Notes under the pieces: model-generated | Told to the model about the DNA's origin: nothing | The model's database searches: none | Seen by the model: the letters and a program-made list of their open reading frames with translations, nothing else | Source of the DNA: an uncultured Bacteroidota bacterium | Lineage (GTDB): Bacteria > Bacteroidota > Bacteroidia > AKYH767-A > JABDAW01 | Assembly: GCA_903844645.1 (NCBI GenBank) | Contig: CAIMUP010000107.1 | Coordinates: 1-64,000 of the forward strand | Length of the DNA stretch: 64,000 nucleotides | Direction of reading: 5' to 3' | Shown here: positions 57 to 64,000 of the stretch, one piece after another | Position numbering within the stretch: position 1 is the stretch's first letter | Layout: each line of letters begins with the position of its first letter | Translations under genes and position numbers: made by a program

Positions 57-310
57 GGGTTGGTAAGAGGGTCTTGAGGGTTGGTAAGAGGGTCTTGAGG
101 GGAGGTAAGAGGGTTGTGGGGTGAGGTAAGAGGGTTGTGGGGTGAGGTAAGAGGGTTGTGAGGTGAGGTAAGAGGGTTGTGTGGTGAGGTAAGAGGGTTG
201 TGGGGTGAGGTAAGAGGGTTGTGGGGTGAGGTAAGAGGGTTATGGGGTGAGGTAAGAGGGTTGTGGGGTGAGGTAAGAGGGTTGTAGGGTGAGGTAAGAG
301 GGTTGTGAGG
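57..310. repeat. 21-bp tandem array A (unit gaggtaagagggttgtggggt, about 12 copies)
   Basis: gaggtaag recurs at 123, 144, 165 and onward with 21-bp spacing; intergenic, upstream of the + strand gene at 529. Confidence 0.97.
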
Positions 311-528
311 CAAAGTTTATGGCGGTCTGAACGGGGATTTGGGAAATTTTTGGGAATTGGGAGGGGGTGATTGGGGAGGGAAAAGATGGATTTATTGGTG
401 GGTAAAATCTGTATTGGGAGATGTTTTGTCTTTGGAATTGGTTTTGAGGGGGAAATAAAGTTGGATTAAATTTGCGGGATTATAAAATAAAATGTAATTT
501 TGCAGTCTTAATTATTAATAAAAATTTT

Positions 529-1470
529 ATGCCTGTAACATTAACAACTGCAAGACCTGTTCTGAAAGGGAAGACTTCCTTCAGCGTCTTCGACCAAATC
601 ATCGTCATCGGCATCGCCAAATACAAAACCAAACAACCCCTCTTCTTCGCCAAAAACAACAAGTGGACCATCGCCTGGGGAACCAATCTCCTCGCTGATA
701 AAGATGCCGCATCTGTCCTGCCCGACAACTTTTCGCGCCAAGCAGTCATTGATGCAAAACGTATTTTGATGGATGTGCAAACCGTAGATTGTATCATCAT
801 CGCAAACGATCTCAAAGAACTCATCGAAGCCTCCTTCCCCGAAAATCTATGGGCAGAAAAAAAGATAGAAGCCGGCATGGCACACTACGGCAAAGCCGCC
901 ACCAAACCCGGCGAATGTAGCCTCATGATGGCGTCCGGCGTTACCTTCATGGCAAATGTAGAAAACCATGCAGCACTCGTTGCCGGCGGAATGTTAGCAG
1001 GATTTCAAGCAGGTTATCTGGGTCAGAAAAATGCGTTCAACACCGCTCACGATGCCTATACCTCTGCCGTCAGCGATGCACAAGAAGCCACCGATATCAA
1101 GATAGCCGCCTACAACGCCATCTACACCAAATACATGCAGATGGCACGCGTCGCCAAGAACCTCTTCCGAAATGATCTCGCCATCCTGAACTTCATCGTC
1201 TTCGCAACCATCAAGCACACCATCCAGCCCGAATATCAAGCCGTAGAAACCGTGAGAATCAAGAAAAATTCATCCGAACAAATCGCCAATGCCATCCCAG
1301 GCACACCCATTATTAATATCGGCACCCTACCCGTCACCATCAACGATACCGTGATACTCGCAGCCGGAGCCACCATCAACAACACCTTCGGCGAACGCGT
1401 AAAAATCACCAATGGCAATGCCCTCTACCCCTGCGCAGTGAGAATGACAAGGATGGTGCATAAAAATTAA
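529..1470 (+). CDS. hypothetical protein
   Basis: Long ORF; ATG at 529 (MPVTLTT...) preferred over 472 because a TAnnTTTG-type promoter (taattttg) lies about 30 bp upstream of it. Confidence 0.7.
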   Translation: MPVTLTTARPVLKGKTSFSVFDQIIVIGIAKYKTKQPLFFAKNNKWTIAWGTNLLADKDAASVLPDNFSRQAVIDAKRILMDVQTVDCIIIANDLKELIEASFPENLWAEKKIEAGMAHYGKAATKPGECSLMMASGVTFMANVENHAALVAGGMLAGFQAGYLGQKNAFNTAHDAYTSAVSDAQEATDIKIAAYNAIYTKYMQMARVAKNLFRNDLAILNFIVFATIKHTIQPEYQAVETVRIKKNSSEQIANAIPGTPIINIGTLPVTINDTVILAAGATINNTFGERVKITNGNALYPCAVRMTRMVHKN

Positions 1471-1509
1471 CTTGCTATGATGGATTTGTAATCCATCATC
1501 AAAACCAAA

Positions 1510-1552
1510 AGCCCTCGAATATCTCCATCCGAGGGCTTTCGCTTTTTATTGA
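1510..1552. terminator. hairpin terminator between convergent genes
   Basis: agccctcg...cgagggct followed by T-rich sequence. Confidence 0.75.
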
Positions 1553-1563
1553 AGAATTAAGAA

Positions 1564-3690: not shown

Positions 3691-3713
3691 TTTTTTTAAT
3701 TGTTATTAAATAT

Positions 3714-3750
3714 AAAAAAGGGCAATCGAATAATTGCCCTTTTAATTCTA
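3714..3750 (-). terminator. hairpin terminator downstream of rpsO
   Basis: aaaagggcaat...attgccctttt inverted repeat. Confidence 0.7.
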
Positions 3751-3765
3751 TTAAATCTATGCAGA

Positions 3766-4035
3766 CTATTTACGGAGACCTAAGGCTGCGATAACCTTAC
3801 GATACCTGTTGATGTCAACGTGCATCAGGTATTTCAGCAAGCGTTTGCGTTTACTTACTAACTGTATCAATGCGGTCTGCGTTGAAAAGTCTTTCTTGTT
3901 TGCTTTTAGATGTTGCGTCAACGCGGAGATGCGGGTTGAGAACATTGCGATTTGTGCTTCGCTGTTGCCGGTATCGGCTTCGGACTTTCCGTATTTCTTG
4001 AAAATCTCTTTCTTGGTTTCGGTACTTAATGCCAT
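3766..4035 (-). CDS. rpsO: 30S ribosomal protein S15
   Basis: MALSTETKKEIFKKYGKSEADTGNSEAQIAMFSTRISALTQHLKANKKDF...RKRLLKYL. Confidence 0.97.
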   Translation of the reverse strand: MALSTETKKEIFKKYGKSEADTGNSEAQIAMFSTRISALTQHLKANKKDFSTQTALIQLVSKRKRLLKYLMHVDINRYRKVIAALGLRK

Positions 4036-4113
4036 TCTATTAACTATTAATTTATTTATTAGGGCGCAAAGATATAAAAGTTTTCGGTAATCCAAAAACG
4101 ATGATTTGCTTTC

Positions 4114-4743: not shown

Positions 4744-4874
4744 CATCATCATTTTATTAATAAGCAGCAAAATTAGGAAAAAGGAAATGATTCCGGCAAA
4801 TGGCATTTTGAGAAAAGTTCCTTTTTACACCTGAAAACCGCCTTTTACAACGGGAAATTCTGCCCAGTCGAAGA

Positions 4875-5132
4875 CTAAAGTGTAAATGATTTAAGTCTGG
4901 GCGTAAATGATTTAAGTCTGGGCGTAAATGATTTAAGTCAGGGCGTAAATGATTTAAACCGGGTGGTAGTATGATTTAAGTCTGGGCGTAAATGATTTAA
5001 ACCGGGTGGTAATATGATTTAAGGTTGGGCGTAAATGATTTAAACCGGGTGGTAGTATGATTTAAGTCTGGGCGTAAATGATTTAAGTCTGGGCGTAAAT
5101 GATTTAAGGTAGGGTGTAAATGATTTAAGGTG
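4875..5132. repeat. 21/22-bp tandem array B (gtctgggcgtaaatgatttaa, interspersed with 22-bp accgggtggtagtatgatttaa)
   Basis: gatttaa at 4888, 4909, 4930, 4951, 4973, 4994, 5016, 5037, 5059, 5080, 5101, 5122; divergent intergenic region. Confidence 0.97.
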
Positions 5133-5315: not shown

Positions 5316-5365
5316 CAAAAATTGTGGCGCAATAATTTCCCCTCCCGATTCCTAATTTTGGCGGC

Positions 5366-6600: not shown

Positions 6601-6715
6601 TGAGAATGGGAGAATCGCGGTAAGGGATGGGAGAATCGCGGTTGGGGATGGGAGAATCGCGGTTAGGGATGGGAGAATCACGGTTAGGGATGGTAGAATC
6701 GCTGTTTTTACGTGT
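6601..6715. repeat. 21-bp tandem array C (agaatcgcggttagggatggg, 5 copies)
   Basis: agaatc at 6611, 6632, 6653, 6674, 6695. Confidence 0.96.
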
Positions 6716-6811
6716 AGAATTCTTGGGGAAGGGGGATTTTATTAGCCCAAAAATGGGGAATCTTTCTTTATTCAAAAGAAAAATTAACCGTGAGTTTTGT
6801 AGTTTTGCAGG
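6701..6811 (+). promoter_or_regulatory. array-associated promoter cassette (copy 1) ending in taGTTTTG-type -7 element
   Basis: About 110 bp nearly identical to the reverse complement of 10903..11012; ends TTAACCGTGAGTTTTGTAGTTTTGC, a match to the Bacteroidota TAnnTTTG consensus. Confidence 0.75.
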
Positions 6812-6838
6812 ATTAATAACAAATAAAAATCTAATAAA

Positions 6839-7675: not shown

Positions 7676-7686
7676 TAAATTTCATT

Positions 7687-7732
7687 ATCCTTTTATGATT
7701 GCGACCTTTTTGGGGAGCAACAATAAAAGGAT
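7687..7732. repeat. REP-like dispersed hairpin (copy 1)
   Basis: ATCCTTTTATgaTTGCgACC...GGaGCAAcaATAAAAGGAT; related copies at 9146, 9932 and 49909. Confidence 0.85.
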
Positions 7733-7746
7733 GATGATGATGGCTA

Positions 7747-9066
7747 TTAATCTTCTTCTCCGTCTTTGCCTCGGAAGTATATCGAGATGGGTACGCCTGA
7801 TAAATCAAAGTTTTCGCGGAGTTTGTTTTCGATGAAGCGTCGGTATTGTTCTTTGATGTATTGGGGCATGTTGCAGAAGAAGGCGAAGGCGGGTGTTTTG
7901 GCGGGTAGCATGGTGATGTATTTTATCTTGATGTGCTTGCCTTTCGTGGCGGGTGGCGGATTGTATTCGATGATGGGGAGCATTATTTTATTGAGTTTCG
8001 AGGTCGGGATTTTCGCGGCGCGGCTGTTGAATACCTGCACTGCGGTCTCTAATGCTTTGTGGATGCGTTGCTTCTCGTGGACGGAGACGAAGAGGATCGG
8101 GATGTCGGTGAATGGCGAGGTTTTGGCTTTGATGCTTTCGATGTATCGCTTGGTGGAATTGGTGTCTTTTTCTATCAAATCCCACTTGTTGACGAGGATC
8201 ACGATGCCCTTTTTGTTCTTGTCGGCGAGGTGGAAAATGTTGATGTCCTGGGCGGTCATTCCTTCCTGCGCATCAATCATTAAAATACAAACATCGCTCT
8301 CTTCAATCGAGCGGATGGCGCGCATGACGGAGTAAAATTCGATGTCTTCTTTGACCCTTGTTTTGCGGCGCAATCCTGCGGTATCTATCAATAGGAAATC
8401 GAAACCATAAGCGTTGTATCGTGTGTTGATACTATCGCGAGTAGTCCCCGCAATCGGCGTAACGATACTACGGTCCTCGCCAATCAAAGTATTCAGGAAA
8501 GATGACTTACCGACATTGGGCTGCCCGACGATAGCGAACTTAGGCAAGCCAGCGTTTTCATCCACATGTTCCTTGTCGAATGAACCGATGACCATATCAA
8601 GCAATTCGCCAGTGCCACTCCCACTCACGGCAGAGATGCAAAACACTTCGCCCAAGCCGAGGCTATAGAATTCATTCGAGTCAATAATCCGTTTACTGTT
8701 ATCAACTTTATTAGCGACGAGGATAACTTTCTTGTTCGATTTACGAATCAAACCAGCCACCTCCAAGTCCAGATCAGTAACACCCGTAACCACGTCCACC
8801 ATGAACAACAAGACATCAGCCTCCTCGATAGCGATCTTCACCTGCTTACGGATTTCGCTTTCAAAAATATCCTCCGAACCGTGGATATATCCGCCAGTAT
8901 CAATGACCGAAAACGCCTTGCCGCACCATTCCACATGACCATAATGCCTGTCGCGAGTAACGCCCGAAACCTCATCTACTATTGCTTCTCTCGATTCAAT
9001 CAGTCTGTTGAAGAGGGTGGACTTTCCCACGTTAGGTCGCCCGATAATTGCTACAATGTTGCTCAT
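7747..9066 (-). CDS. der: ribosome biogenesis GTPase Der (tandem G domains)
   Basis: Two GTPase domains: [14 protein letters not shown] and [16 protein letters not shown]-like C-terminus. Confidence 0.98.
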
Positions 9067-9145
9067 TATTATAAATATTTAGGCGGCAAAGATAAGATTC
9101 TAAGGGGTGATGGGATTTTGCCTAAGTTTAATCATAGTGTTCATC

Positions 9146-9192
9146 ATCCTTTTATTGTTGCACCGCAAGGGCGGATGCAATCATAAAAAGAT
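9146..9192. repeat. REP-like dispersed hairpin (copy 2)
   Basis: ATCCTTTTATTGTTGCACCGCAAGGGCGGATGCAATCATAAAAAGAT; overlaps the 3' end of the hepT-like gene. Confidence 0.8.
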
Positions 9193-9904: not shown

Positions 9905-9931
9905 CCCGCAAAAATACTAATAATAAAGTTA

Positions 9932-9977
9932 ATCCTTTTATTGCTGCTCCCCAAGAAGGTCGCAATCATAAAAGGAT
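9932..9977. repeat. REP-like dispersed hairpin (copy 3)
   Basis: ATCCTTTTATTGCTGCTCCCCAAGAAGGTCGCAATCATAAAAGGAT, direct orientation relative to copy 2. Confidence 0.85.
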
Positions 9978-10000
9978 AATGAAATAAAATGCACAACGCA

Positions 10001-10130
10001 AGTCCCGTTAGGGACGAAATCATAATAGAAAACACATTCACTAAACACCTTCAAAACCCCGTAGGGGTGGCATATTGGTAGCAAATAATTCCAAACACAA
10101 CACCCTCAAAACCCCGTAGGGGTGGCATTA
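10001..10130. repeat. short 'ccccgtaggggtggcat' hairpin repeats
   Basis: gtcccgttagggac once, then aaccccgtaggggtggcat twice; related copies near 63290-63460. Confidence 0.75.
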
Positions 10131-10144
10131 TGGGAACAAATTAT

Positions 10145-10900
10145 TTAATTAAGATTAATCCCTTCAATCAAAAAAACATCGCCATACTTCACATAAGTCA
10201 GGTTCAGTTTCTTTTTCAAAGAGTCCGTTTGATAAGCCAAATAAAGAACCAAATGTTTCTCACTAAGCCCAATATTTTGAGTATTCAACAACGTATCAAT
10301 TTTAACAGCCCTCACATCATTCATGTATGCCTCAAACTTAATTATCGGAGTATAAGACCTGCACCGTTCACTCAACAGATTATTATAAATATCAGGAAAA
10401 CTCTTCTCCTTCAAGTCCTTAAAAAATGGAGCAGTCAAAGAATCAATAAACGAAAATTGTGAACTGTCTTTAATTATAAAACGAACAGCTTGAAGTCTTA
10501 TAGTATCTTTATTTTCTACCAGAAAAGTTCCGTAAATCTTCCCCGAACATTTTGCATAATCAACATCATAAATCACCGAAGCAACCGGCTTATCAAAGCC
10601 AAATTGGGTTTGCACTTTATAGATATTTATGCTATAAGAATTCAAATCCCCATAAAGTTGATTATGAAAATTCAGCAACATTTTCAAATCCTCCTCGCTT
10701 TGAAATTTCTTACAAATCTCCGTCATATTCTCATAAACCTTTGAATAATTCTTTGATTTTAAATCCTCAATAAAACCAACAAATAAGTCCTTGTTACAAG
10801 AAGCAATAAGGTTATGAAACATCCCATCAGTATGCTTTTTTGTCTTGCATGAAACGCAAAGAGCAAGAATAAGAACCAAACAAACTTTTATCTTCTTCAT
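10145..10900 (-). CDS. hypothetical lipoprotein
   Basis: MKKIKVCLVLILALCVSCKTKK lipobox. Confidence 0.75.
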   Translation of the reverse strand: MKKIKVCLVLILALCVSCKTKKHTDGMFHNLIASCNKDLFVGFIEDLKSKNYSKVYENMTEICKKFQSEEDLKMLLNFHNQLYGDLNSYSINIYKVQTQFGFDKPVASVIYDVDYAKCSGKIYGTFLVENKDTIRLQAVRFIIKDSSQFSFIDSLTAPFFKDLKEKSFPDIYNNLLSERCRSYTPIIKFEAYMNDVRAVKIDTLLNTQNIGLSEKHLVLYLAYQTDSLKKKLNLTYVKYGDVFLIEGINLN

Positions 10901-10902
10901 CC

Positions 10903-11012
10903 CGCCAAAACTACAAAACTCACAGTTAATTTTTCTCTTGAATAAGGAAAGATTCCCCTTTTTTGGGCTAATAAAATTCCCCCTCCCCAAGAATTCTACA
11001 CCAAAAAACAGC
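10903..11012 (-). promoter_or_regulatory. array-associated promoter cassette (copy 2)
   Basis: Reverse complement closely matches 6701..6811 and ends taGTTTTG just upstream of the 10900 start. Confidence 0.75.
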
Positions 11013-11170
11013 GATTCTACCATTCTCTACAGCGATTCTACCATTCTCTACAGCGATTCTACCATTCTCTACAGCGATTCTCCCATTCTCTACAGCGATT
11101 CTCCCGTTCTCTACAGCGATTCTCCCATTCTCTACAGCGATTCTCCCATTCTCAACCGCGATTCCCCCCT
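11005..11170. repeat. 21-bp tandem array D (agcgattctaccattctctac, about 8 copies)
   Basis: agcgattct at 11010, 11031, 11052, 11073, 11094, 11115, 11136. Confidence 0.97.
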
Positions 11171-13018: not shown

Positions 13019-13102
13019 ACGTACATAATCTGTCAGGTTATGTACATAACTTGACAGATTGTGTACGTAACCGATCAGATAGCATATACACTTTCAGGAA
13101 TT
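13019..13102. repeat. short 21-bp array N with a 34-bp near-perfect palindrome (13027..13060)
   Basis: acgtacataatctgtcaggtt / atgtacataacttgacagatt / gtgtacgtaaccgatcagata; convergent intergenic region. Confidence 0.85.
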
Positions 13103-16907: not shown

Positions 16908-17134
16908 AAATTTAATATAATGAGCCGCAAAAATAATAATTAGAAAGAGAGAAATTATCACCCTACCCCTCATCGTCGTGTTGCAGCCCGCCAAAGCGGA
17001 GCTATCACACAACGATGATGACGATAAAAATTGGGATAAAACCATCCACAGCCCCGCCTCGGTCAGGAGGTATCCCATAAAACGGATAAAATTTTTAGGA
17101 AACCAAGAATAATTCCAAAATAAAGTTTTTTATT

Positions 17135-17330
17135 TTTCAGAAAAGCAGTTGTGGTTTTCAGAAAAGCAGTTGTGGTTTTCCGAAAAGCAGTTGTGATTTT
17201 CCGAAAAGCAGTTGTGGTTTTCAGAAAAGCAGTTGTGGTTTTCAGAAAAGCAGTTGTGGTTTTCAGAAAAGCAGTTGTGGTTTTCAGAAAAGCAGTTGTG
17301 GTTTTCTGAAAAGCAGCCCTGCTTTTCAAG
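17135..17330. repeat. 21-bp tandem array E (gaaaagcagttgtggttttca, 9 copies)
   Basis: gaaaagcag at 17140, 17161, 17182, 17203, 17224, 17245, 17266, 17287, 17308. Confidence 0.97.
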
Positions 17331-17666
17331 GTATTTAGGGTCTGTTTTGGCACTTTTATAAGCTAAAACAGGGGTCAACCTGAACGGAGGCGTGGGTTTC
17401 TATTAGTAATTTCGGTTTTGGAGGAGTTTTCGGGGGATGCCCTCCGCCAGATTCCGATTTTGATAGCAAGTACCGAGAGCCGGCAGCGAAACATCAGAAT
17501 TTTGGGCATTAATTCCTAAAAAAATAGCCTCAAAATCGGGATTCGGGACTTGTATTTTATAAAGAAAGTTTTGCAAAAGTTTGTCCATGTCAGAAATTTT
17601 TTAGAACTTTGTCCCCTCAAACAAAAAATGAATCCTTTGAAACATAAAATAATTAAATAAAAAACA

Positions 17667-21326: not shown

Positions 21327-21398
21327 GATATAATTAATCAAATAATAAACCTTTTATTCATCCCCAAAAAAGTTTTTATTAAACAAAATACCAGCATT

Positions 21399-21605
21399 CC
21401 CAGTGCCGGTTTTGCCGATAGCAAACTCCATATCTTTATTCCCAGTGCCGGTTTTGCCGATAGCAAACTCCATATCTTTATTCCCAGTGCCGGTTTTGCC
21501 GATAGCAAACTCCATATCTTTATTCCCAGTGCCAGTTTTGCCGATAGCAAACTCCATATCTCTAAAACTGGTGTCGGTTTTGCCGATATGGACTTGCTAA
21601 TCAGT
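21399..21605. repeat. 42-bp (2 x 21) tandem array F (cccagtgccggttttgccgatagcaaactccatatctttatt, 5 copies)
   Basis: cccagtgcc at 21399, 21441, 21483, 21525, plus a degenerate fifth copy; convergent intergenic region. Confidence 0.97.
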
Positions 21606-27878: not shown

Positions 27879-28092
27879 GTCTGCCCAGGACACTCGGGCA
27901 GATAAAGCTGGTCTTCCAACCGCAGTTTCTACGCCAGGAACAACAGTTTCTATGGCACGAACTGCAGTTTCTATCACAGGTTGCGCTGTTTCTACAGCAA
28001 AAACTGCTAACCCTACGCCAGAAACTGCTGTTTCCAGAGCGGGTTCAACTATTTCCCGAGCAGAATCTTCTGCCCGAGTGTTCTGGGCAGAC
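27879..28092. repeat. degenerate 21-bp array G bounded by two TCTGCCC-N9-GGGCAGA dyads
   Basis: cagtttctacgccaggaacaa / cagtttctatggcacgaactg / cagtttctatcacaggttgcg / ctgtttctacagcaaaaactg ...; boundary dyad centres at 27891 and 28080 (189 = 9 x 21). Confidence 0.9.
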
Positions 28093-32703: not shown

Positions 32704-32937
32704 TTGTTCGGTTTTTTAAAAGCCAATAATACGAAAACCGTTTCATTTGGTTTCATTCGTTTTGCAGTTTTCATACTTCGTGCCATTGTTGTTAGTAAAA
32801 ATTTATATTTTATTTGGAGCGACAAAAATAGGAAAAATTTTATTAATAAATACAAGCATTTGCAAAAAAAACTTCGCCATGCCCCTTTTCGCCATCATAA
32901 TTGGGGTCAAAAAAGCACATGTTTTACTCTAGTTTAT

Positions 32938-33084
32938 ACCCAGAATCCTGAGGACGATACCCAGAATACCGCGGACAATACCCAAAATACCAAGGACAAT
33001 ACGCAGAATACCAAGGATAATACCCAGGATACCAAGAACAATACCCAGAATATTGACCCTTGTCCCCAGAATATCAAATGTAAT
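32938..33084. repeat. 21-bp tandem array H (acccagaataccaaggacaat, 7 copies)
   Basis: Starts at 32938, 32959, 32980, 33001, 33022, 33043, 33064; divergent intergenic region. Confidence 0.97.
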
Positions 33085-35453: not shown

Positions 35454-37106
35454 TTACTTCTGCACAACAAACTTCCCTCGTGCGATGGTTAATGAGCTTG
35501 TCGAATTACTTACTTCATAGAAATAAATGCCTGCGCTCCAGGTGGAAATAGAGATGGTAGTAGAAATGCCGGTAAGCTTTTCTTTATAGACTTCTGTGCC
35601 CATGATGTCTGTAATGATTAATTGTTCATTAGGAGTTGGCATGGATTGATGGATGGATAGAAGGGTGGTGGCGGGGTTGGGGTAAATGGAAATGGAAGTT
35701 TTATTTGTGATGGATTCTATAATAACTGTTTCAAGGCAAGGAGGAGATGTTGTGTTATTTGATTTAGCAACAAAAACTGTTTCATATCCACCAATATTTA
35801 AAGTATCATTCCCGAAAATAATTGGTGTAAGCAAATCTCCACCAATGTAAATACTACCTGATGGACTTACTGCTACAGCATTATTATCATCCCCTCCACT
35901 TGGCAATAACTCTGCGAAAACTATATGACCGCAAGGATTATATTTAACAAGGAACATAATATCAACTCCATTAGCTAAAGGCTGTAAGGTAATTGTATCA
36001 AAAGTTACAGGAACATTTGATTGATAAATATGACCTGAAATGTATGAATTGCCGATTGCATCAACAGCAACTTTCCAACTCTGACTATAATTTTGTCCAG
36101 TTGTAGTTTGAGCCCAAATAGCATTACCTAAAGGATCATATTTGACAATGAAGAAATTACCCGAAGTGTTATTGGTAAGCAAAACGGAACCAAAATTGAT
36201 ACTTAAGGAATCAAAAAATCCTGTAGTATAGCTATTACCGTATGAGTCTGTTGCAATACTAAATCCTTGACCGAACCCGATACCAGTCGTACCTCTTACC
36301 CAAATCTCATTACCATTAGAATTATATTTTGCCAAAAAAAAGTTTGCTGGATGAGTACTTACTAAACTGTCTAAATCAAAGTATGCAGTATAATTTCCAA
36401 AAGACCCCGTTAAATAAATATTTCCATTATGATCTGTACAAACAGCATAACCTCCAGCTACTGCGTGTGCAAAAAGGACATTTCCATTAGGATCAAGTTT
36501 GACAAGAAACGCACCACCATTGTTTGTTCCATGAATTGTATCTGTTCCAAAAATTAATGTTGGGGTTGTAAAAATACCTGTGATATAACAATTGCCGATT
36601 GCATCCGTAGCCACAGAATATATGATTTCAGTTCCTGTTACTTCTCCAAAACCTTTAACCCATAATTCATGTCCAGACGAATCATATTTTGCAACAAAAA
36701 TATCATTCCCTCCAGATAAATTAACACTATCCGTATCAAAATTTATCGGGAAATAATGTGCCCTTCCTGCCATAAAGCTATTCCCAAAGTTATCGGTAGC
36801 AACTCCACAGGTAAAAGCATAACCATTACCTCCAGGGCTTTTTACCCAAAGTAAATTTCCTAAGGAGTCGTATTTAGCTATATAAACCTGATAGCCGTAG
36901 GAAGTAAAATGAGTAGTGTCAAAGGTAACAGACCATTCATAGGTTCCTGTAAAATAAACATTATTGGATGCATCAGTTGCAACATCCCAACCTTCTCCCC
37001 AACCAGTTGAAGGGGCACTTCTACCCCAAAGCCAATCAGGAGTCTGCGCCTTTGCATTCAAGCACAAGAAGGCGAACACGATTACGATTGTGTAAATTCT
37101 TTTCAT
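35454..37106 (-). CDS. SBBP/beta-propeller repeat protein with T9SS type A sorting domain
   Basis: Repeated FVAKYDSSGNELWVKG...DAIGNCYITG; C-term SISIYPNPATTLLSI...IARGKFVVQK. Confidence 0.9.
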   Translation of the reverse strand: MKRIYTIVIVFAFLCLNAKAQTPDWLWGRSAPSTGWGEGWDVATDASNNVYFTGTYEWSVTFDTTHFTSYGYQVYIAKYDSLGNLLWVKSPGGNGYAFTCGVATDNFGNSFMAGRAHYFPINFDTDSVNLSGGNDIFVAKYDSSGHELWVKGFGEVTGTEIIYSVATDAIGNCYITGIFTTPTLIFGTDTIHGTNNGGAFLVKLDPNGNVLFAHAVAGGYAVCTDHNGNIYLTGSFGNYTAYFDLDSLVSTHPANFFLAKYNSNGNEIWVRGTTGIGFGQGFSIATDSYGNSYTTGFFDSLSINFGSVLLTNNTSGNFFIVKYDPLGNAIWAQTTTGQNYSQSWKVAVDAIGNSYISGHIYQSNVPVTFDTITLQPLANGVDIMFLVKYNPCGHIVFAELLPSGGDDNNAVAVSPSGSIYIGGDLLTPIIFGNDTLNIGGYETVFVAKSNNTTSPPCLETVIIESITNKTSISIYPNPATTLLSIHQSMPTPNEQLIITDIMGTEVYKEKLTGISTTISISTWSAGIYFYEVSNSTSSLTIARGKFVVQK

Positions 37107-37180
37107 TGTATTACTATATTTTATTTAAGATTTTCCAAGATAACATCCCTGTCATAAGCCCGGACATCGCTATTGTATAT

Positions 37181-37510
37181 TAGGAATGGACGTTTGTGTG
37201 TAAGGATGACATCATTCTGTGTAAGAATGACATCATTCTGTGTAAGAATGACATCATTCTGTGTAAGAATGACATCATTCTGTGTAGAGAATGGACGTTC
37301 GTGTGTAGAGAACAGACATTCGTGTGTAGAGAACAGACGTTCGTGTGTAGAGAACAGACATTCGTGTGTAGAGAATAGACGTTTGTGTGTAGAGAACAGA
37401 CGTTCGTGTGTAGAGAACAGACGTTTGTGTGTAAGAATGACATCATTCTGTGTAAGAATGACATCATTCTGTGTAAGAATGACATCATTCTGTGTAGAGA
37501 CTGCCTTTCT
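37181..37510. repeat. mosaic 21-bp array I: X4-Y7-X3 (X = gtgtaagaatgacatcattct; Y = gtgtagagaacagacgttcgt)
   Basis: X at 37198, 37219, 37240, 37261; Y at 37282 to 37408; X at 37429, 37450, 37471. Confidence 0.98.
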
Positions 37511-49333: not shown

Positions 49334-49735
49334 TTAGATTCTTGCCAAGATTCTTCTAATCACTGCCAACATTCTCCTAATCACTGCCAACATTCTTCTA
49401 ATCATTGTCAACATTCTCCTAAACACTGCCAGTATTCTCCTAATCACTGACAACATTCTTCTAATCACTGCCAGTATTCTCCTGAACACTGCCAAGATTC
49501 TACTAATCACTGCCAATATTCTCCTAAACATTGCCAACATTCTTCTAATCACTGCCAAGATTCTCCTAAACATTGCCAATATTCTCCTAAACATTGCCAA
49601 CATTCTCTTAAACATTGCCAACATTCTTCTAATCATTGCCAACATTCTTCTAATCATTGCCAGTATTCTCCTAAACATTGCCAATATTCTCCTAAACATT
49701 GGCAATGTTCTTCTAAACATTGCCAATTTTCAGGG
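49334..49735. repeat. 21-bp tandem array J (aacattctcctaatcactgcc, about 19 copies)
   Basis: tgcc/tgtc at 49343, 49364, 49385, 49406 and onward. Confidence 0.97.
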
Positions 49736-49951: not shown

Positions 49952-50016
49952 AATAGAAGAATTTCCTATTTTTGCCGCGATTAAATAATAATTCTAACCA
50001 AATAAATACTATTAAA

Positions 50017-53000
50017 ATGAATTTCTCTACAACAAATCACAACAGTTCTTGCCACGGCAAGCCAAACATTTCTCAAAACAATAATTTGAGAAAACATCAA
50101 CTCTTATTAACCCTGATGCTGTTACTATTAGTCAGTTTCATCAGCGTTCAATCCTATTCTCAAGGCACTTGGCAAGCGGTTGCAACACCGGCTCCGCATC
50201 AAAATGTAGGCGGATTCATCGTCCTCTCCGATGGCTCTGTGTTATGCAAATCTGCCTCTGGCGGTACGCCGGCTGGTGATGGAAACTTGTGGGATAAACT
50301 GACTCCTAATATTCTCGGGAGTTATGTCAATGGTACTTGGAGTACCATTGCTGCCATGCAACGAACACGTGTTTTCTTTTCATCCCAGATGCTGATGGAT
50401 GGGCGCGTGTATGTGGCTGGTGGTGAATATGGAACCGATGGAACGCAAGCCGGAGCGCACGGAGAAGTTTATAATCCGCTGACGAATACCTGGTTACAAT
50501 GCCCTGCCCCGGGCATCATCATCAGCGATGCCAATTCAGAAATTCTGCCTAATGGGACTATCTTACAGGCAGCGGTGAATCAATCGCAACCGACGGCTAT
50601 GCTGATTTATAATCCTACGTCAAATACCTACACCGCCGGACCATCTGCCATTCACGGGCATAATGAATCTGCATGGGTTAAACTGGCGGATAACAGTATC
50701 TTGTATGTTGATGAATCAGCCCAAACCTCCGAACGATTTATTCCTTCCTTAAACCAATGGGTTGCGGATGGGAATATTCCGGTAGCTCTGTATCAAAATA
50801 ATACTGCCGAAATGGGACCGGGGTTTTTATTGCCTGATGGTCGTGCATTTTTTATTGGGGGAACACCGCATACGGCATATTATACCCCTTCAGGGAACAG
50901 CAGCCCTGGCACATGGACAGCCGGACCTGATGTTCCGAACGGATATGTTATGGATGATGCTCCAGGAGCAATGATGGTGAATGGAAATATTCTTATCGCC
51001 GTAGATGTTCCTGTTGAAACTGCACCAACACGCTTCTATGAATTTAATTACCTCACCAATACCTTTACACAAGTGGGCGCACCGGGTGGTGGCACTTCTT
51101 TGGCAGGGATTTCAACATTCCAAACGACAATGGTTTGCTTGCCAAACGGACAAGTTCTTTTTGGCATTGGGCAGGCGGGTACTGCTTCATCAACGTATTA
51201 TGTTTATACACCAAACGGTAGTCCGTTAACCGCCGGGAAGCCCACCGTTGCAAGTATTACACAAACAAATTGCAATGCATTCTCCATTACCGGAACATTG
51301 TTTAATGGTATATCGGAGGGAGCTGGTTACGGAGATGATTTTCAGATGGCTACAAATTATCCCATAGTTCGATTATCGAATGGTGGCAATGTTTATTACG
51401 CAAGAACTTTTAATTGGAACAGCACAGGAGTTATGAGAGGAAGCGCACCCGATACTACACAATTTACTTTGCCGGCAGGGTTGCCCCATGCAGTATATTA
51501 TTTGAAAGTAGTCGCTAATGGAATTGCATCGGACAGTGTTCAGTTTATTCCTTTTCCTTTGTTGAGTAGTACAACTACACCACCATCAGTTTGTAGTGGA
51601 ACAGCCTTTACTTATACCCCCACAAGTTTAAATGCAGGAACTACTTTTGCATGGACACGAGCCGCCGTAACGGGAATTAGTAATGCTGCGGTTACTACGC
51701 CACAGGCTACAAATCCGAATGAAGTATTGATAAATACGACTGCAAATCCTGTCAGCGTTGTTTATTTATACCGACTGACAGTAAATAACTGTACCGATTC
51801 AGCAACAGTAACTGTTGTTGTGAATCCTTCTCCAACAGCTTCTATCACTGGAACAAATACTATTTGTCAGGGAGTAAATACGTCATTAACAGCGACAGGT
51901 GGAGGAACTTATTTATGGAATACCGGTGCCACTACCTCTGGAATAACAGTAACTCCTGCAAGTACTACAACCTATACTATAACAATTACTTCAGGTAATG
52001 GATGTACCGGCTCGGCAAGTAGAACAGTTACCGTGAATGCTTCGCCAACTGCAACCATTTCAGCCAATGGCAACACCACCTTTTGTCAAGGTGGGTCAGT
52101 AATCTTAACATCATCTGCTGGGGCTTCTTACCTTTGGTCGAATGCGGCAACTACACAATCCATCACTGTTACTACATCGGGAAATTATTCAGTAAGCGTT
52201 ACCAATGCTAATGGATGTTCCGCTGCTTCGTCATCAACAACAGTTACTGTGAATACCTTGCCAACTGCAACCATTTCAGCAAACGGCAACACCACCTTTT
52301 GTCAAGGTAATTCAGTAATCTTAACATCATCTGCTGGTGCATCTTACCTTTGGTCGAATGCGGCAACTACACAATCCATCACAGTTACTACATCGGGAAA
52401 TTATTCAGTAACAGTTACGAATGCTAATGGATGTTCCGCTGCTTCATCATCAACAACCGTTACCGTGAATGCTTTGCCAACCGCAATTATTTCAGCAAAT
52501 GGCAACACCACCTTCTGTCAAGGAGGGTCAGTAATCTTAACATCATCTGCTGGTGCATCTTACCTTTGGTCGAATGGTTCAACTTCGCAAACCATAACTG
52601 TTACTACTTCAGGAAATTATTCAGTAACCGTTACGAATGTTAATGGATGTTCCGCTGCTTCATCATCAACAACCGTTAACGTGAATACTTTGCCAACCGC
52701 AATTATTTCAGCAAACGGCAACACCACCTTTTGTCAAGGTAATTCAGTAATCTTAACATCATCTGCTGGTGCATCTTACCTTTGGTCGAATGCGGCAACT
52801 ACACAATCCATCACAGTTACTACTTCGGGAAATTATTCAGTAACTGTTACGAATGCTAATGGATGTTCCGCTGCTTCGTCATCAACAACAGTTACTGTGA
52901 ATACCTTGCCAACTGCTACTATATCAGCAAACGGTAACACCACCTTCTGTCAAGGTAATTCAGTTATCTTAACATCATCTGCTGGTGCATCTTACCTTTG

Positions 53001-54738
53001 GTCGAATGCGGCAACTACACAATCCATCACAGTTACCACTTCAGGAAATTATTCAGTAATTGTTACGAATGCTAATGGATGTTCCGCTGCTTCATCATCA
53101 TCAACCGTTACCGTGAATGCTTTGCCAACCGCAATTATTTCAGCGAATGGCAACACTACCTTTTGTCAAGGTAATTCAGTAGTCTTAACATCATCTGCTG
53201 GGGCTTCTTACCTTTGGTCGAATGCGGCAACTGCACAATCTATTACTGTTACTACTTCGGGAAATTATTCAGTAACTGTTACCAATGCTAACGGATGTTC
53301 TTCATCATCAAATTCAATTACCGTTACCGTCAATACCACCACTACCGCTTCAATTACTGCTAATGGCAACACCACATTTTGCCAAGGTGGTTCAGTAATC
53401 TTAACATCATCGGCAGGTGCCTCTTACCTTTGGTCGAATGCGGCAACTTCGCAATCCATCACCGTTACTACATCAGGAAACTATTCCGTAACCATGACCA
53501 ATGCCTCTGGTTGTACCGGAATTGCTTCACAATCGGTAACGGTTAATCCATCAGCAAGCCCCGCCATCACTGGTCCTTCGGCAATATGCAATGGTGCTGC
53601 CATCACATTAAGTGCCGGTTCATTCGCCTTATACATTTGGAGCAATGCCGCCACCACTTCTTCCATTACAATTACTGCTGCCGGCACCTATCGCGTTACT
53701 GTTACCAACGCCAATGGCTGCACCGGAACGGCTTCCAGAGTTATTACCGCAGCTACAGGTTCTACCCCTGTAATTACTGCAAGTGGACCTATCAGTTTTT
53801 GTCCTGGTGGCTCTGTAACCTTGAGTACCACTGCGTTTCCGGCTTACATTTGGAGTAATGGAAGCACCACTTCTTCCATCATAGTTTCTACAGCAGCGAC
53901 TTATAAAGTTACCGTAACGAATGCCAGTGGATGCACGGGTTCTGCATCAAAAGTGGTTACTGTTTATGCCGCTCCCGTACCGATGATTACCATAACCAAC
54001 ATGAATACTTTTTGTACGGGTGGTTCCGCAACCCTTACTGTCAGTGCGATCTTCGCTTCTTATTTATGGAATACTGGTGCCACGACCCGACCTATTAATG
54101 TGAGCACAAGTGGAACATTTACCGTTACTGTTACCAATACCAATGGCTGCACTGGCTCGGTTTCTACGGTAATGAATAATTCTTGCAATGCTCCCACAAG
54201 CCTTACCACCACTGCCATTACGGGTACTTCGGCAACAACTAATTGGGTGCAGCCGATTTGTTATTATGGTTATTCCATTCAAAGAAGTATTCACAATGCC
54301 AATGTTTGGACGACCTTTGTGATTACTCCAAATACACATTATACTTTCTCTGGTTTGGCTTTGAATACTACTTATGATTGGCAAATCAGAACTAATTGCA
54401 ATGCGGCACAAACCAATGTTTCGGCATGGAGTCCGATCACGACATTCACTACTTTGCCGGCAAGAGATGGTGGTGAAATGGATAACAATTATTCTTTCCA
54501 GGTGATTCCGAATCCCGCTTCTAATCAGACTTCCGTAACTTTCATGTCTGACAATGAAGAAAATTATTCAGTTAAATTAATAGACCTTTCAGGCAGGATT
54601 ATTCACACCGAAATGAGCCATGCCACGATAGGCGAAAATCAAATGATGATGGATATTTCTCAAGTATCGAAAGGGATTTATTTTGTCATTCTCCAAAAGG
54701 GCGACGCGGTTTTGAATACCAAATTAGTGATTGAATAA
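50017..54738 (+). CDS. large T9SS type A sorting-domain protein: galactose-oxidase/kelch-like N-terminus plus tandem near-identical Ig-like repeats
   Basis: VYVAGGEYGTDGTQ...EVYNPLTNTW kelch-like; 72-aa repeats ISANGNTTFCQGGSVILTSSAGASYLWSNAATTQSITVTTSGNYSVTVTNANGCSAASSST; C-term VIPNPASNQTSV. Confidence 0.9.
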   Translation: MNFSTTNHNSSCHGKPNISQNNNLRKHQLLLTLMLLLLVSFISVQSYSQGTWQAVATPAPHQNVGGFIVLSDGSVLCKSASGGTPAGDGNLWDKLTPNILGSYVNGTWSTIAAMQRTRVFFSSQMLMDGRVYVAGGEYGTDGTQAGAHGEVYNPLTNTWLQCPAPGIIISDANSEILPNGTILQAAVNQSQPTAMLIYNPTSNTYTAGPSAIHGHNESAWVKLADNSILYVDESAQTSERFIPSLNQWVADGNIPVALYQNNTAEMGPGFLLPDGRAFFIGGTPHTAYYTPSGNSSPGTWTAGPDVPNGYVMDDAPGAMMVNGNILIAVDVPVETAPTRFYEFNYLTNTFTQVGAPGGGTSLAGISTFQTTMVCLPNGQVLFGIGQAGTASSTYYVYTPNGSPLTAGKPTVASITQTNCNAFSITGTLFNGISEGAGYGDDFQMATNYPIVRLSNGGNVYYARTFNWNSTGVMRGSAPDTTQFTLPAGLPHAVYYLKVVANGIASDSVQFIPFPLLSSTTTPPSVCSGTAFTYTPTSLNAGTTFAWTRAAVTGISNAAVTTPQATNPNEVLINTTANPVSVVYLYRLTVNNCTDSATVTVVVNPSPTASITGTNTICQGVNTSLTATGGGTYLWNTGATTSGITVTPASTTTYTITITSGNGCTGSASRTVTVNASPTATISANGNTTFCQGGSVILTSSAGASYLWSNAATTQSITVTTSGNYSVSVTNANGCSAASSSTTVTVNTLPTATISANGNTTFCQGNSVILTSSAGASYLWSNAATTQSITVTTSGNYSVTVTNANGCSAASSSTTVTVNALPTAIISANGNTTFCQGGSVILTSSAGASYLWSNGSTSQTITVTTSGNYSVTVTNVNGCSAASSSTTVNVNTLPTAIISANGNTTFCQGNSVILTSSAGASYLWSNAATTQSITVTTSGNYSVTVTNANGCSAASSSTTVTVNTLPTATISANGNTTFCQGNSVILTSSAGASYLWSNAATTQSITVTTSGNYSVIVTNANGCSAASSSSTVTVNALPTAIISANGNTTFCQGNSVVLTSSAGASYLWSNAATAQSITVTTSGNYSVTVTNANGCSSSSNSITVTVNTTTTASITANGNTTFCQGGSVILTSSAGASYLWSNAATSQSITVTTSGNYSVTMTNASGCTGIASQSVTVNPSASPAITGPSAICNGAAITLSAGSFALYIWSNAATTSSITITAAGTYRVTVTNANGCTGTASRVITAATGSTPVITASGPISFCPGGSVTLSTTAFPAYIWSNGSTTSSIIVSTAATYKVTVTNASGCTGSASKVVTVYAAPVPMITITNMNTFCTGGSATLTVSAIFASYLWNTGATTRPINVSTSGTFTVTVTNTNGCTGSVSTVMNNSCNAPTSLTTTAITGTSATTNWVQPICYYGYSIQRSIHNANVWTTFVITPNTHYTFSGLALNTTYDWQIRTNCNAAQTNVSAWSPITTFTTLPARDGGEMDNNYSFQVIPNPASNQTSVTFMSDNEENYSVKLIDLSGRIIHTEMSHATIGENQMMMDISQVSKGIYFVILQKGDAVLNTKLVIE

Positions 54739-55746: not shown

Positions 55747-55780
55747 AATTAAAAAAAATCTGTACAGATTTTTTTTAATT
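55747..55780. repeat. 34-bp perfect palindrome AATTAAAAAAAATCTGTACAGATTTTTTTTAATT
   Basis: Centre 55763.5; second palindrome AATTCTGTACAGAATT centred at 55784.5 (21 bp away). Confidence 0.95.
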
Positions 55781-55790
55781 CTGTACAGAA

Positions 55791-56010
55791 TTAAATTTCT
55801 TATGCCCATAAGAAAATTTCTCATACCTCTAAGAAAATTTCTTGTGCCCGTAAGAAAATTTCTCATACCCCTAAGAAAATTTCTTATACCCGTAAGAAAA
55901 TTTCTTATACCCCTAAGGAAATTTCTTGTGCCCGTAAGAAAATTTCTTGTACCCGTAAGGATATTTCTTGTACCCCTAAGAAAATTTCTTGTCCCTGTAA
56001 GAAACCTCCT
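55791..56010. repeat. 21-bp tandem array K (aagaaaatttcttatacccgt, about 10 copies), palindromic core AAGAAA-A-TTTCTT
   Basis: Exact 21-bp spacing; divergent intergenic region. Confidence 0.97.
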
Positions 56011-57900: not shown

Positions 57901-57964
57901 ATTGGGAATGACATTATCCACTATTAAATTCCCTTTATCCCGTTGGTTGGCGGCGAAATCCAAG

Positions 57965-58045
57965 CCGATGACGGAGAAATCGGGGCGGATCACGGAGAAA
58001 TCGGGACGGATCACGGAGAAATCGGGACGGATTTCCGGAAAAGGG
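57965..58045. repeat. short 21-bp tandem array L (gatcacggagaaatcgggacg, about 3.5 copies)
   Basis: acggagaaatcgg at 57971, 57992, 58013. Confidence 0.93.
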
Positions 58046-59909: not shown

Positions 59910-59961
59910 GTTTCTTTCCGAATAAATATAGGGTCTCTTCCGAGTCTCTTTTATACCCCTG

Positions 59962-61848: not shown

Positions 61849-61860
61849 TATCTTTGCCGG

Positions 61861-62748
61861 ATGGAGAAGAAAAAAATACGGTTTATCATCAACCCGAAAT
61901 CGGGTGTGGGGAAGCATAAGAATATTGTAAAATACATCGAGCAATACTTGGATAAAACCCTCTTTCATTACGAGGTTGTGTTCACGGAGAAGCCCGGACA
62001 TGGGATCAGTTTATCCAGGCAGGCTGCGGAGATGGGATACTATGCGGTAGTGGCGGTCGGGGGTGATGGAAGCATCAATGAAGTGGCCAGCAGCCTGATC
62101 AATTCGGACACTGCCTTGGCGATTATTCCGACCGGTTCGGGGAATGGTTTCGCGAATCATTTTCATATTCCGCATGATATGAAGCAAGCGATTCAAGTGA
62201 TTAATACTGGCAAGATAAGTGTCGTGGATACGATGGTTGCCGATGAACAAACGGTGATCGGAATCTGCGGTGTGGGCTTCGATGCACACATAGCGCATGA
62301 GTTTGCGAGCTATGGTAAGCGGGGCTTTTCATCTTATATAAAGGTGGTGTTGCGTGAGTTTCCGAGGTATAAAAATTTGAAGTATAAGATGGAAGTAAAC
62401 GGCAAGATTGTGGAGCATCAAGCGATATTGATTACGTTTGCGAATGCCTCGCAGTTCGGGAACAATGCCGTGATCAATCCTCAAGCAAATGTGCAGGACG
62501 GGATGATGGAGATATGCATCATGAAGCCTTTCAACCTGCTGCAATTCCCGATGATGGTGTATTCTTTATTCCATAAAAAAATTGATAAGATGCCGTACAT
62601 GGAAGTCATTAAAACAGACCAGGTAACGCTGTTGAACAACATAAAAAAGATAGCGCATATTGATGGCGAACCGGTGTTCATCGAAGAGCAGACGGTGTTC
62701 AAGATAATACCAAAATCGTTGCGGGTGATTATCCCGAATGAATCGTAA
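61861..62748 (+). CDS. diacylglycerol kinase-family lipid kinase
   Basis: IRFIINPKSGVGKHKN...VVAVGGDGSINEVASSLI...IIPTGSGNGFANHF. Confidence 0.95.
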   Translation: MEKKKIRFIINPKSGVGKHKNIVKYIEQYLDKTLFHYEVVFTEKPGHGISLSRQAAEMGYYAVVAVGGDGSINEVASSLINSDTALAIIPTGSGNGFANHFHIPHDMKQAIQVINTGKISVVDTMVADEQTVIGICGVGFDAHIAHEFASYGKRGFSSYIKVVLREFPRYKNLKYKMEVNGKIVEHQAILITFANASQFGNNAVINPQANVQDGMMEICIMKPFNLLQFPMMVYSLFHKKIDKMPYMEVIKTDQVTLLNNIKKIAHIDGEPVFIEEQTVFKIIPKSLRVIIPNES

Positions 62749-62777
62749 TTTTACCTTTCATTAAACTAAAATATAAG

Positions 62778-63287
62778 ATGATTAATTCAGGAAAAAAAGT
62801 GTTTATCCGTAAAGATAAATCGGTGTTGGATGAGATAGATATTATTCCGAGCAAGGGCTCTAAAACCACTGCTGGAGTAAGCATCAAGGAAGTGATTCTT
62901 CGCGATGTAGAGCTGGTGGAAGCCAGCGAAGGAAAGTTTCGTATCGAGTACAGCATCATCGCAATAGAGGATAATATTATCATGCCTTTGCGAAATAAAT
63001 CCATTGCTATGGAGGGGCTAAAAGTGGTAATGGTGAACCCTTGGGGATTGTCTCCGAAGGAATTGTTTTGCGCTTGTCTGATGGCGAGAAATGGGATGAC
63101 GATGCTTGCGATAGAATCGGCTACCGGCATTTCCGAGAATGAGGTTCGGGGGGCTATCCGAAGGAGTTACGAGAAGAGCGAGCTGCATAAAAATACCATC
63201 TTCAACCCTGCCTTTATTTTGTTATATGCCGACTATGTGTTGCCCATCAGTTTGATATGGATTTATCCTGTGAAGAAGGGGAAGTGA
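62778..63287 (+). CDS. hypothetical protein
   Basis: Complete ORF, no family recognised. Confidence 0.65.
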   Translation: MINSGKKVFIRKDKSVLDEIDIIPSKGSKTTAGVSIKEVILRDVELVEASEGKFRIEYSIIAIEDNIIMPLRNKSIAMEGLKVVMVNPWGLSPKELFCACLMARNGMTMLAIESATGISENEVRGAIRRSYEKSELHKNTIFNPAFILLYADYVLPISLIWIYPVKKGK

Positions 63288-63465
63288 ATCCCGTAGGGAT
63301 GGCATCTTAATAGCGATTCATTCGCTGCACTAAACTCGGAATCCGGTAGGGATGACCTCGTGTTAAAAACATTTTTATTCGTCAATGCCATCCCTACGGG
63401 ATTCATGTAATGTAGGTCAGTTATTTTTCTATTATGATGCCATCCCTTCGGGATTCATGAAACCG
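63284..63465. repeat. cluster of four 'gaatcccgtagggatggcat' elements, two direct and two inverted
   Basis: gaatcccgtagggatggcat, gaatccggtagggatgacc, then atgccatccctacgggattcatg, atgccatcccttcgggattcatg. Confidence 0.85.
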
Positions 63466-63752
63466 ATTTTATTATCTGTAATTTTATTATTAATCCCTTT
63501 CCCTCCAAAAATTTCCCCTCCATCCCTCCAAACATTTTTCATTAAATATTAAAAATAGACACTTTCGGGTTTTGCGGAGGATTCTATTCTGTGTTAATTT
63601 GCCGAATCAAACAGAAGTAAATGAATCTCGCATTAAATACAAAGCTAATAAATCGCAAAGCGGCAAACCACTCCTATAGTATAGAGAGTAATGCCCCGAA
63701 CCGTTCATTCCCTGTGAAATTCATGGATGACAACGGGAAATACCATTCACTA

Positions 63753-64000
63753 CACTTCAAACATGTGAAGTGCAATGATCAGTACTGTTTGCCTTACTTC
63801 GCAAATGTGAATAGCAATGATCAGTACTGTTTGCCTCACTTCACAAATGTGAATAGCAATGATCAGTACTGTTTGCCTCACTTCACAAATGTGAATAGCA
63901 ATGATCAGTACTGTTTGCCTCACTTCACATGTGCGAATAGCAATGATCAGTACTGTTTGCCTCACTTCACATGTGTGAATAGCATTGAACAGTGTTTTAA
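63753..64000. repeat. 42-bp (2 x 21) tandem array M with two alternating palindromes
   Basis: gcaatgatcagtactg at 63772, 63814, 63856, 63898, 63940; runs to the window edge. Confidence 0.97.

What the first reader, a model, noticed from the sequence alone, without database searches (positions are those of the whole stretch)
57..64000. A genome-wide '21-bp ruler': at least 14 intergenic tandem arrays with unrelated sequences but one shared period
Seen directly: arrays at 57-310, 4875-5132, 6601-6715, 11005-11170, 13019-13102, 17135-17330, 21399-21605 (42 bp), 27879-28092, 32938-33084, 37181-37510, 49334-49735, 55791-56010, 57965-58045 and 63753-64000 (42 bp). Apart from the related pair at 6601 and 11005, I see no common consensus sequence, yet every period is 21 or 42; the only deviation is the 22-bp unit type mixed into the 4875 array. 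Every array is intergenic. Ordinary replication slippage gives a spread of periods. A constant period across unrelated sequences implies a ruler. 21 bp is two turns of B-DNA, so every unit presents the same helix face. Inference: the arrays could be phased binding sites for one or more oligomerising DNA-binding proteins, or products of an enzyme that duplicates a fixed 21-nt length. I know of no described Bacteroidota repeat class that fits.
Basis: partly seen in the sequence, partly recalled or inferred. Interest (0 to 1): 0.93.

Follow-up and report, generated by a model that had tools for sequence, protein, structure and literature searches.

The report
Genome-wide 21-base-pair phased repeat arrays
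In one genus of little-studied Bacteroidota, DNA between genes is studded with about one tandem repeat array every four to seven kilobases, nearly all with a unit of exactly 21 base pairs (two turns of the helix), and in the best-studied family the unit is a conserved mirror-symmetric core plus a freely changing spacer, which looks like rows of protein-binding sites held on one face of the DNA.

Summary
In 804 kb of this genome, 209 of 251 tandem arrays have a period that is an exact multiple of 21 (132 at 21; two at 20; one at 22). Arrays cover 3.9% of the DNA, about one locus per 4.3 kb, or roughly 890 genome-wide by extrapolation. Two same-genus genomes show the same. A same-family genome and 80 other Bacteroidota loci show nothing comparable.

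Units are not all unrelated. Families share a constant flank but carry different units beside unrelated genes. In one 15-copy family the unit is TTTTC-n-GAAAA plus a locus-specific 10-bp spacer; within arrays the arms change least (4.9%), the spacer more (11%), the dyad centre most (36%). Register-shifting indels are about 3.3-fold depleted relative to ordinary intergenic DNA.

I infer phased operator-like sites kept at two helical turns. The binding protein is unknown and most arrays show no obvious dyad. Fixed-step copying or neutral concerted evolution remain possible. Reverse transcriptase, Cas1 and Argonaute are absent from this genome.

The general class (constant 20-23 nt size, variable sequence) was already described but unexplained. 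Density, strictness, constant-flank design and the selection signal are added here.

The parts
55..307 (.). 21-bp array, 12 copies (G-rich unit TGGGGTGAGGTAAGAGGGTTG); overlaps the end of contig C89
4882..5143 (.). 21/22-bp mixed array between divergent genes; unit holds TAAATGATTTA
6606..6706 (+). 21-bp array, family F1 (unit ATGGGAGAATCGCGGTTAGGG)
6707..6819 (+). F1 constant flank (TGTAGAATTCTTGGGG...) between the array and the start of the 6839 gene; about 20 related copies in the genome
10893..11007 (-). second F1 constant flank in the window, inverted
11008..11168 (-). 21-bp array, family F1
13021..13102 (.). short 21-bp array with dyad ATAAyCTGnCAGrTTAT, between convergent genes
17134..17330 (+). 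21-bp array, family F2 (unit = TTTTCnGAAAA dyad + 10-bp spacer GCAGTTGTGG)
17331..17440 (+). F2 constant flank (AAGGTATTTAGGGTCTG...); 15 copies in this genome, none found in G001-G003
21396..21605 (.). 42-bp array made of two dissimilar 21-mers, between convergent genes
27881..28090 (.). weak 21-bp array bounded by two inverted 21-nt copies (CTGCCCAGGACACTCGGGCAG) 189 bp apart; the boundary copies are conserved in G002
32936..33084 (.). 21-bp array, 6-7 copies
37184..37510 (.). 21-bp array alternating two palindromic unit types (GAATGACATCATTC and GAACAGACGTTC); left flank 37087-37196 shared with contig C54
49334..49735 (.). 21-bp array, about 19 copies; family with arrays on C103 and C2
49727..49840 (.). 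flank 99% identical to the flank of the C103 array
55780..56010 (.). 21-bp array with dyad TTTCTTA-n6-TAAGAAA upstream of the 56099 gene; related array on C79 with shared left flank
57951..58045 (.). 21-bp array in a gene junction that is 15-22 bp long and array-free in two same-genus genomes; same unit found in a G001 array elsewhere
63753..64000 (.). 42-bp array of two dissimilar 21-mers at the contig end; first copy holds CACTTCAAACATGTGAAGTG

Best explanation
The arrays are platforms of protein-binding sites. In the clearest family each 21-bp unit carries a dyad-symmetric core of about one helical turn, and the rest is a spacer that may take any sequence as long as the centre-to-centre distance stays 21 bp, so every site faces the same side of the DNA. 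About 8-9 sites in a row would let a dimeric protein bind cooperatively along one face, as an array operator or as a nucleoid or insulator-like platform upstream of or between genes. Concerted evolution within each array (slippage or unequal exchange) keeps copies alike and renews the spacer, while selection keeps core and spacing. Copies spread, often with a flank, to unrelated genes; different families have different cores. Shown: strict period across unrelated units, constant-flank dispersed families, fewer substitutions in dyad arms than elsewhere, depletion of register shifts, preferred array size, genus restriction. Inferred: that a protein binds, that it is dimeric and cooperative, what it does, and that arrays without a visible dyad work the same way.
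For: F2 family: 13 arrays beside one constant flank share TTTTC-n-GAAAA (arm positions 85-100% alike between loci) with differing 10-bp spacers; within arrays, substitutions are 4.9% in arms, 36.1% at the centre, 11.2% in the spacer (arms versus spacer p=4e-7). Conserved arms with a free centre fit a dimer's operator; sequence-conserved arms without clear compensatory change fit this better than a hairpin. Across 28 arrays with stems of 6 or more, stem positions vary 10.8% and other positions 17.6% (p=5e-10; 23 of 28 arrays). Dyads are enriched: 41 of 160 unit consensuses with stem >=5 against 13 in shuffles. Register: 0.030 uncompensated indels per substitution in arrays against 0.100 in other intergenic repeats of the same genome (p=3e-25). 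Many units beside near-identical F1 flanks are as different as random yet 21-based. Array size is unimodal, median 8.3, 9.2 and 8.7 units in three species.
Against: About 72% of units have no dyad stem of 5 or more. No motif is shared across families, so one protein cannot recognise all arrays by sequence. There is no 10.5-bp periodic signal within units. Presence at orthologous gene ends is only weakly conserved (5' ends, G000-G002: odds ratio 5.3, p=0.047; other comparisons not significant). Arrays occur in divergent, convergent and tandem gaps alike. No binding protein was identified; HU-HIG proteins are not expanded. F2 units were picked by similarity to the core (at most 3 mismatches), which slightly lowers the arm rate, and shared descent of the family contributes to arm conservation between loci.
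Confidence: 0.5

Rival explanations
1. Fixed-step copying: an enzyme or replication intermediate repeatedly copies a 21-nt stretch (paired nicks two turns apart, or iterative templated synthesis), so any sequence becomes a 21-bp array and errors in step length are not propagated.
For: Period is blind to sequence; 35 of 74 42-bp arrays have low lag-21 identity, so whole multiples of 21 occur; register is kept; array GC (0.42) resembles coding DNA (0.41) and not intergenic DNA (0.355).
Against: Two-copy 21-bp duplications, the expected first product, are nearly absent outside arrays (4 in 804 kb). No RVT_1, Piwi or Cas1 in this genome; Y1 transposases of the genus are truncated or broken. It does not predict slower change in dyad arms.
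Confidence: 0.2
2. Neutral satellite: all arrays descend from one old dispersed 21-bp array; sequences diverged by concerted evolution and the shared period is inherited, without function.
For: Dispersed families with shared flanks beside non-homologous genes; unit sequences turn over while the flank stays; intergenic DNA in general is repetitive (21% of control segments match elsewhere in the sample).
Against: Neutral drift should spread unit lengths: the indel load is about 3.3-fold lower than in other intergenic repeats and only 3 of 135 simple arrays have 20 or 22 bp. Arms change more slowly than spacers.
Confidence: 0.2
3. RNA-level elements: arrays are transcribed as chains of small hairpins acting on mRNA stability or termination.
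For: Dyads enriched; the related literature class has been suggested to give small RNAs (PMC8161180).
Against: No convincing compensatory changes (14 both-side complementary changes against 1-16 in slid controls); the arms are conserved as sequence; many units lack dyads; all gene-gap orientations are used.
Confidence: 0.06
4. Coding repeats: 21 bp is seven codons and the arrays encode heptapeptide repeats.
For: All periods are multiples of three; slight deficit of stops in the best frame (2 against 5.9, sd 2.0).
Against: No period-3 composition signal; no 18-, 24- or 27-bp peak; no 3-bp uncompensated indels; arrays sit between genes; two array ORFs tested have no Pfam match.
Confidence: 0.04

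Closest known systems
Constant-size bacterial satellites with 20-23 nt repeats (Subirana and Messeguer; Bacillus simplex group and other phyla, PMC8161180)
   Same: Non-coding arrays of one repeat size (20-21, with some at 40-41) and variable sequence, species-specific families, and the proposal that a protein needs the constant size.
   Different: 27 and 29 such arrays in two Bacillus genomes listed as rich in them (their detection rules differ) against 186 loci in 21% of this genome; strictly 21, not 20-21; no short sequence common to the arrays; constant flank with variable unit, and slower change of dyad arms, were not seen in the parts of that paper I read.
TAACTGA heptamer direct repeats of Beggiatoaceae, Cyanobacteria and some Bacteroidetes (PMC4679880)
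   Same: Abundant intergenic tandem repeats, some in Bacteroidetes, proposed as regulator-binding sites.
   Different: One fixed 7-nt sequence, in most species few copies and just upstream of start codons; here many sequences and a 21-bp unit.
REP/BIME elements with RAYT (Y1) transposases (general knowledge)
   Same: Dispersed intergenic palindromic repeats, sometimes tandem.
   Different: REPs are sequence families tied to an intact transposase; here units differ and the Y1 genes are broken in the genus.
Plasmid iterons (general knowledge)
   Same: Direct repeats of about 20-22 bp, same helix face, cooperative binding.
   Different: Iterons mark one origin beside a Rep gene; here hundreds of chromosomal loci.
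CRISPR arrays (general knowledge)
   Same: Constant flank beside an array of constant part plus spacer.
   Different: Spacers are alike within an array; no cas1 in this genome.

Membership tests
Constant-size 20-23 nt satellites | Repeat size constant at 20-23 nt (with doubles) across many arrays in a genome | tested here: met
   132 of 251 arrays at 21, 209 at exact multiples of 21
Constant-size 20-23 nt satellites | Non-coding | tested here: met
   Mostly intergenic; no period-3 signal
Constant-size 20-23 nt satellites | Several sequence families per genome, species-specific | tested here: met
   F1 about 20 related copies in G000, few elsewhere; F2 15 copies in G000, none in G001-G003
Constant-size 20-23 nt satellites | A characteristic short sequence in most arrays of a species | tested here: not met
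   No k-mer common to the arrays; cores are shared only within families. The source states this for most, not all, arrays, so it is not a strict criterion
CRISPR | cas1 present | tested here: not met
   No Cas1 domain in G000
CRISPR | Different spacers within one array | tested here: not met
   Spacers alike within each array
REP/BIME | Cognate intact RAYT (Y1) transposase | tested here: not met
   Only partial or stop-containing Y1 matches in the genus
TAACTGA-type heptamer repeats | 7-nt unit | tested here: not met
   No lag-7 identity in G000 units
Iterons | Single locus next to a replication initiator gene | tested here: not met
   About one array per 4.3 kb; initiator genes were not searched for
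Operator arrays for a cooperative DNA-binding protein | Conserved dyad core at constant helical spacing | tested here: inconclusive
   Met for F2 and for 28 dyad arrays as a group; about 72% of arrays have no clear dyad
Operator arrays for a cooperative DNA-binding protein | Cognate protein binds | not testable with these tools
   Needs pull-down, DAP-seq or ChIP

The most novel reading that the evidence does not exclude
A genus-specific system in which an unknown filament-forming DNA-binding protein (or a few of them) occupies hundreds of 21-bp-phased platforms and organises the chromosome or sets transcription domains, with locus-specific spacers homogenised within each array and spread as constant-flank cassettes.
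Probability: 0.15. Interest if true: 0.92.

Novelty: new variant of a known kind. Interest (0 to 1): 0.7.

Why it matters
Constant-size, variable-sequence satellites in bacteria have been an unexplained curiosity seen at tens of arrays per genome. Here is a lineage with hundreds, with internal signs of what is constrained: spacing and dyad arms, not spacer or dyad centre. That turns 'why 21?' into a testable question, with defined DNA baits (the F2 core, spacer variants, spacing variants) for finding the protein. If an organising protein exists, it would be a new way of marking a bacterial chromosome; if not, the arrays are an unusual natural record of fixed-length repeat evolution.

Tried and rejected
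Curvature or 10.5-bp phasing inside units: no signal. Coding repeats: no period-3 signal, weak stop deficit only. RNA hairpins: no clear covariation. A common motif across families: none. Dyad centre locked to the array boundary: my first phase test was flawed, because in a circular 21-mer each dyad has two equivalent centres 10.5 bp apart; allowing for this the phase looks uniform, so no nick-site register is claimed (the loop sizes of that call are ambiguous for the same reason). Heptamer origin (3 x 7): no lag-7 identity. Rfam on the window: nothing. Reverse transcriptase, Argonaute, Cas1, Y1 transposase or HU-HIG expansion as genus-specific factor: no. Empty-site alignments between species: intergenic DNA is too diverged for base-level junctions, except the 57900-58105 gene junction. 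The strict indel count (24 in 269 arrays) is biased toward in-register arrays, so I rely on the wider count. The J Bacteriol 2020 source paper was not held.
Full report
OBSERVATION. Tandem Repeats Finder confirms the listed arrays. Fetching 804 kb of the same draft genome (G000; 3.84 Mb, 143 contigs; the window is contig C107) gave 251 non-overlapping arrays, 209 with a period that is an exact multiple of 21: 132 at 21, 41 at 42, 26 at 63. Only two have period 20 and one has 22. Arrays fill 3.9% of the sample. Merged into loci there are 186, one per 4.3 kb, which extrapolates to roughly 890 in the genome. A Markov resample yields 7 arrays, one at 21.

SCOPE. Two same-genus genomes carry the same signature: G001 45 of 57 arrays in 259 kb; G002 82 of 168 in 573 kb. 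In 88 kb of a same-family genome (G003) there is one short 21-bp array, and G004 has two in 37 kb; other genomes of the order show next to none. Eighty Bacteroidota loci (1.4 Mb) have 16 arrays at 21 of 131, and none at 42 or 63. A PNPase tree puts the genus, with G003 and G004, on an unnamed branch of Bacteroidota near Cytophagales and Sphingobacteriaceae. The trait therefore looks genus-level.

ANATOMY. Of 74 42-bp arrays, 35 have lag-21 identity below 0.5, so whole multiples of 21 occur, while 31-32 and 52-53 bp do not. Copy number is unimodal with medians of 8.3, 9.2 and 8.7 units in three species, and two-copy 21-bp duplications outside arrays are almost absent. The upper end of the size range may be cut by short-read assembly. 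Array GC is 0.42 against 0.355 for other intergenic DNA. Arrays occur in 59% of divergent, 32% of convergent and 28% of tandem gaps of 30 bp or more (a simple gene caller was used). There is no period-3 and no 10.5-bp signal.

FAMILIES. Array consensuses are mostly unrelated, with a small excess of close pairs, but BLAST with flanks shows that many arrays are members of dispersed non-coding segments of 150-450 bp. In most of the pairs checked the flanking genes are not homologous. Family F1 has the constant flank TGTAGAATTCTTGGGG...; a pattern search gave 24 matches in G000 and two each in G001 and G002, most of those outside G000 weak. Its arrays carry different units: among pairs with at least 85% flank identity, unit identity is either 16-20 of 21 or 8-12 of 21, the latter being the random level. 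One F1 copy has no array. Family F2 (flank at window 17331-17440) has 15 copies, all in G000; the unit is TTTTC-n-GAAAA plus a 10-bp spacer that differs between loci. Intergenic DNA as a whole is repetitive in this genome (21% of control segments match elsewhere in the sample), so dispersal is not unique to arrays.

SELECTION. In F2, within-array substitutions are 4.9% in the ten arm positions, 36.1% at the dyad centre and 11.2% in the spacer; arms against spacer p=4e-7. Caveat: units were accepted with up to 3 core mismatches, and the between-locus conservation includes common descent; the spacer of the same units is the control. Over 28 arrays of all families with stems of 6 or more, stem positions vary 10.8% and the others 17.6% (p=5e-10; lower in 23 of 28). 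Dyads are enriched among units: 41 of 160 with stem >=5 against 13 in shuffles; 66 of 235 in the larger set. Compensatory changes are not clearly enriched, which fits recognition of sequence and not of pairing. Uncompensated indels per substitution are 0.030 in arrays against 0.100 in homologous intergenic pairs of the same genome (p=3e-25). The array set was chosen by period within 2 of a multiple of 21, so some bias toward in-register arrays remains.

TURNOVER. The array at 57951-58045 sits in a gene junction that is 15-22 bp and array-free in G001 and G002; the only other copy of its unit found is a G001 array in another place. Presence of an array near the 5' end of orthologous genes is weakly shared between G000 and G002 (6 both, 8 and 4 single, 28 neither; p=0.047) and not at 3' ends. 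Upstream of the 56099 orthologue both G000 and G002 have an array, with different units.

MECHANISM. I favour phased operator-like sites: dyad core, free spacer, fixed two-turn spacing, homogenised within each array, spread with flanks. Conserved arms with a hypervariable centre are what a dimeric DNA-binding protein leaves behind; fixed spacing keeps successive sites on one helix face and would permit cooperative binding. Shown are the sequence constraints; the protein, the cooperativity and the role are inferred. The weak points are the majority of arrays without a visible dyad, the absence of a common motif, and the lack of a candidate protein. The fixed-step copying model explains sequence-blindness but not the slower arms nor the missing two-copy stage, and the enzymes I could think of are absent (RVT_1, Piwi, Cas1) or broken (Y1). 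Neutral descent explains the shared period but not the narrow length distribution.

KNOWN. Subirana and Messeguer described constant-size, variable-sequence arrays (20-21 or 52 nt in Bacillus; 20-23 nt in other phyla), noted that 20-21 nt is two helical turns, and suggested a protein that needs the constant size to polymerise on DNA (PMC8161180). Their table lists 27 and 29 arrays of that size for two of the genomes rich in them. The present case is a much denser and stricter variant in Bacteroidota, with added evidence on families and on selection. Their wider 2020 survey was not available, so I cannot say whether this genus was in it.

Noticed in passing
window 7679-7754, 9124-9168, 9929-9989: A 45-60 bp imperfect palindrome (ATCCTTTTATTGTTGC...GGTCGCAATCATAAAAGGAT) repeated in the window, at other G000 contigs and many times in G002: a REP/MITE-like family separate from the 21-bp arrays.
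   Followed up: partly
window 27881-27901 and 28070-28090: Two inverted copies of CTGCCCAGGACACTCGGGCAG, each itself a hairpin, exactly 189 bp (9 x 21) apart, conserved in G002 while the sequence between them is less so; no Rfam match. Possibly a structured RNA or binding element.
   Followed up: partly
window 10044-10145 and 63276-63322: Repeats containing CCCCGTAGGGGTGGCAT; the same motif forms a 55-bp tandem array elsewhere in G000 (L036:17123-17275).
   Followed up: no
window 49972-54738: Large ORF with seven 216-bp (72 aa) coding repeats: ordinary protein repeats, not part of the 21-bp rule.
   Followed up: no
C8:10256-10507, C3:3755-4011, C1:23615-23737, C104:92427-92579 (loci L028, L021, L237, L249): A GC-rich repeated intergenic element (GCGCGTCCCCTGCTGCC...GGCAGCAGCGGTCGGGCTGTTCGG) in about ten or more copies, sometimes next to arrays with different units.
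   Followed up: partly
G000:C138:9272-9511; G001:C203:27321-27678; G002:C43:3706-3963; G002:C56:3754-4110: Y1 (RAYT-type) transposase genes are truncated or broken by stops in the genus that has the arrays, whereas most relatives in the order keep full-length ones.
   Followed up: no
L220:16716-16973, L230:11285-11403 (G002): G002 carries many 7-bp arrays (AGTGAAT, AATAGTG type) in addition to the 21-bp ones; 18 of 168 arrays there have period 7.
   Followed up: no
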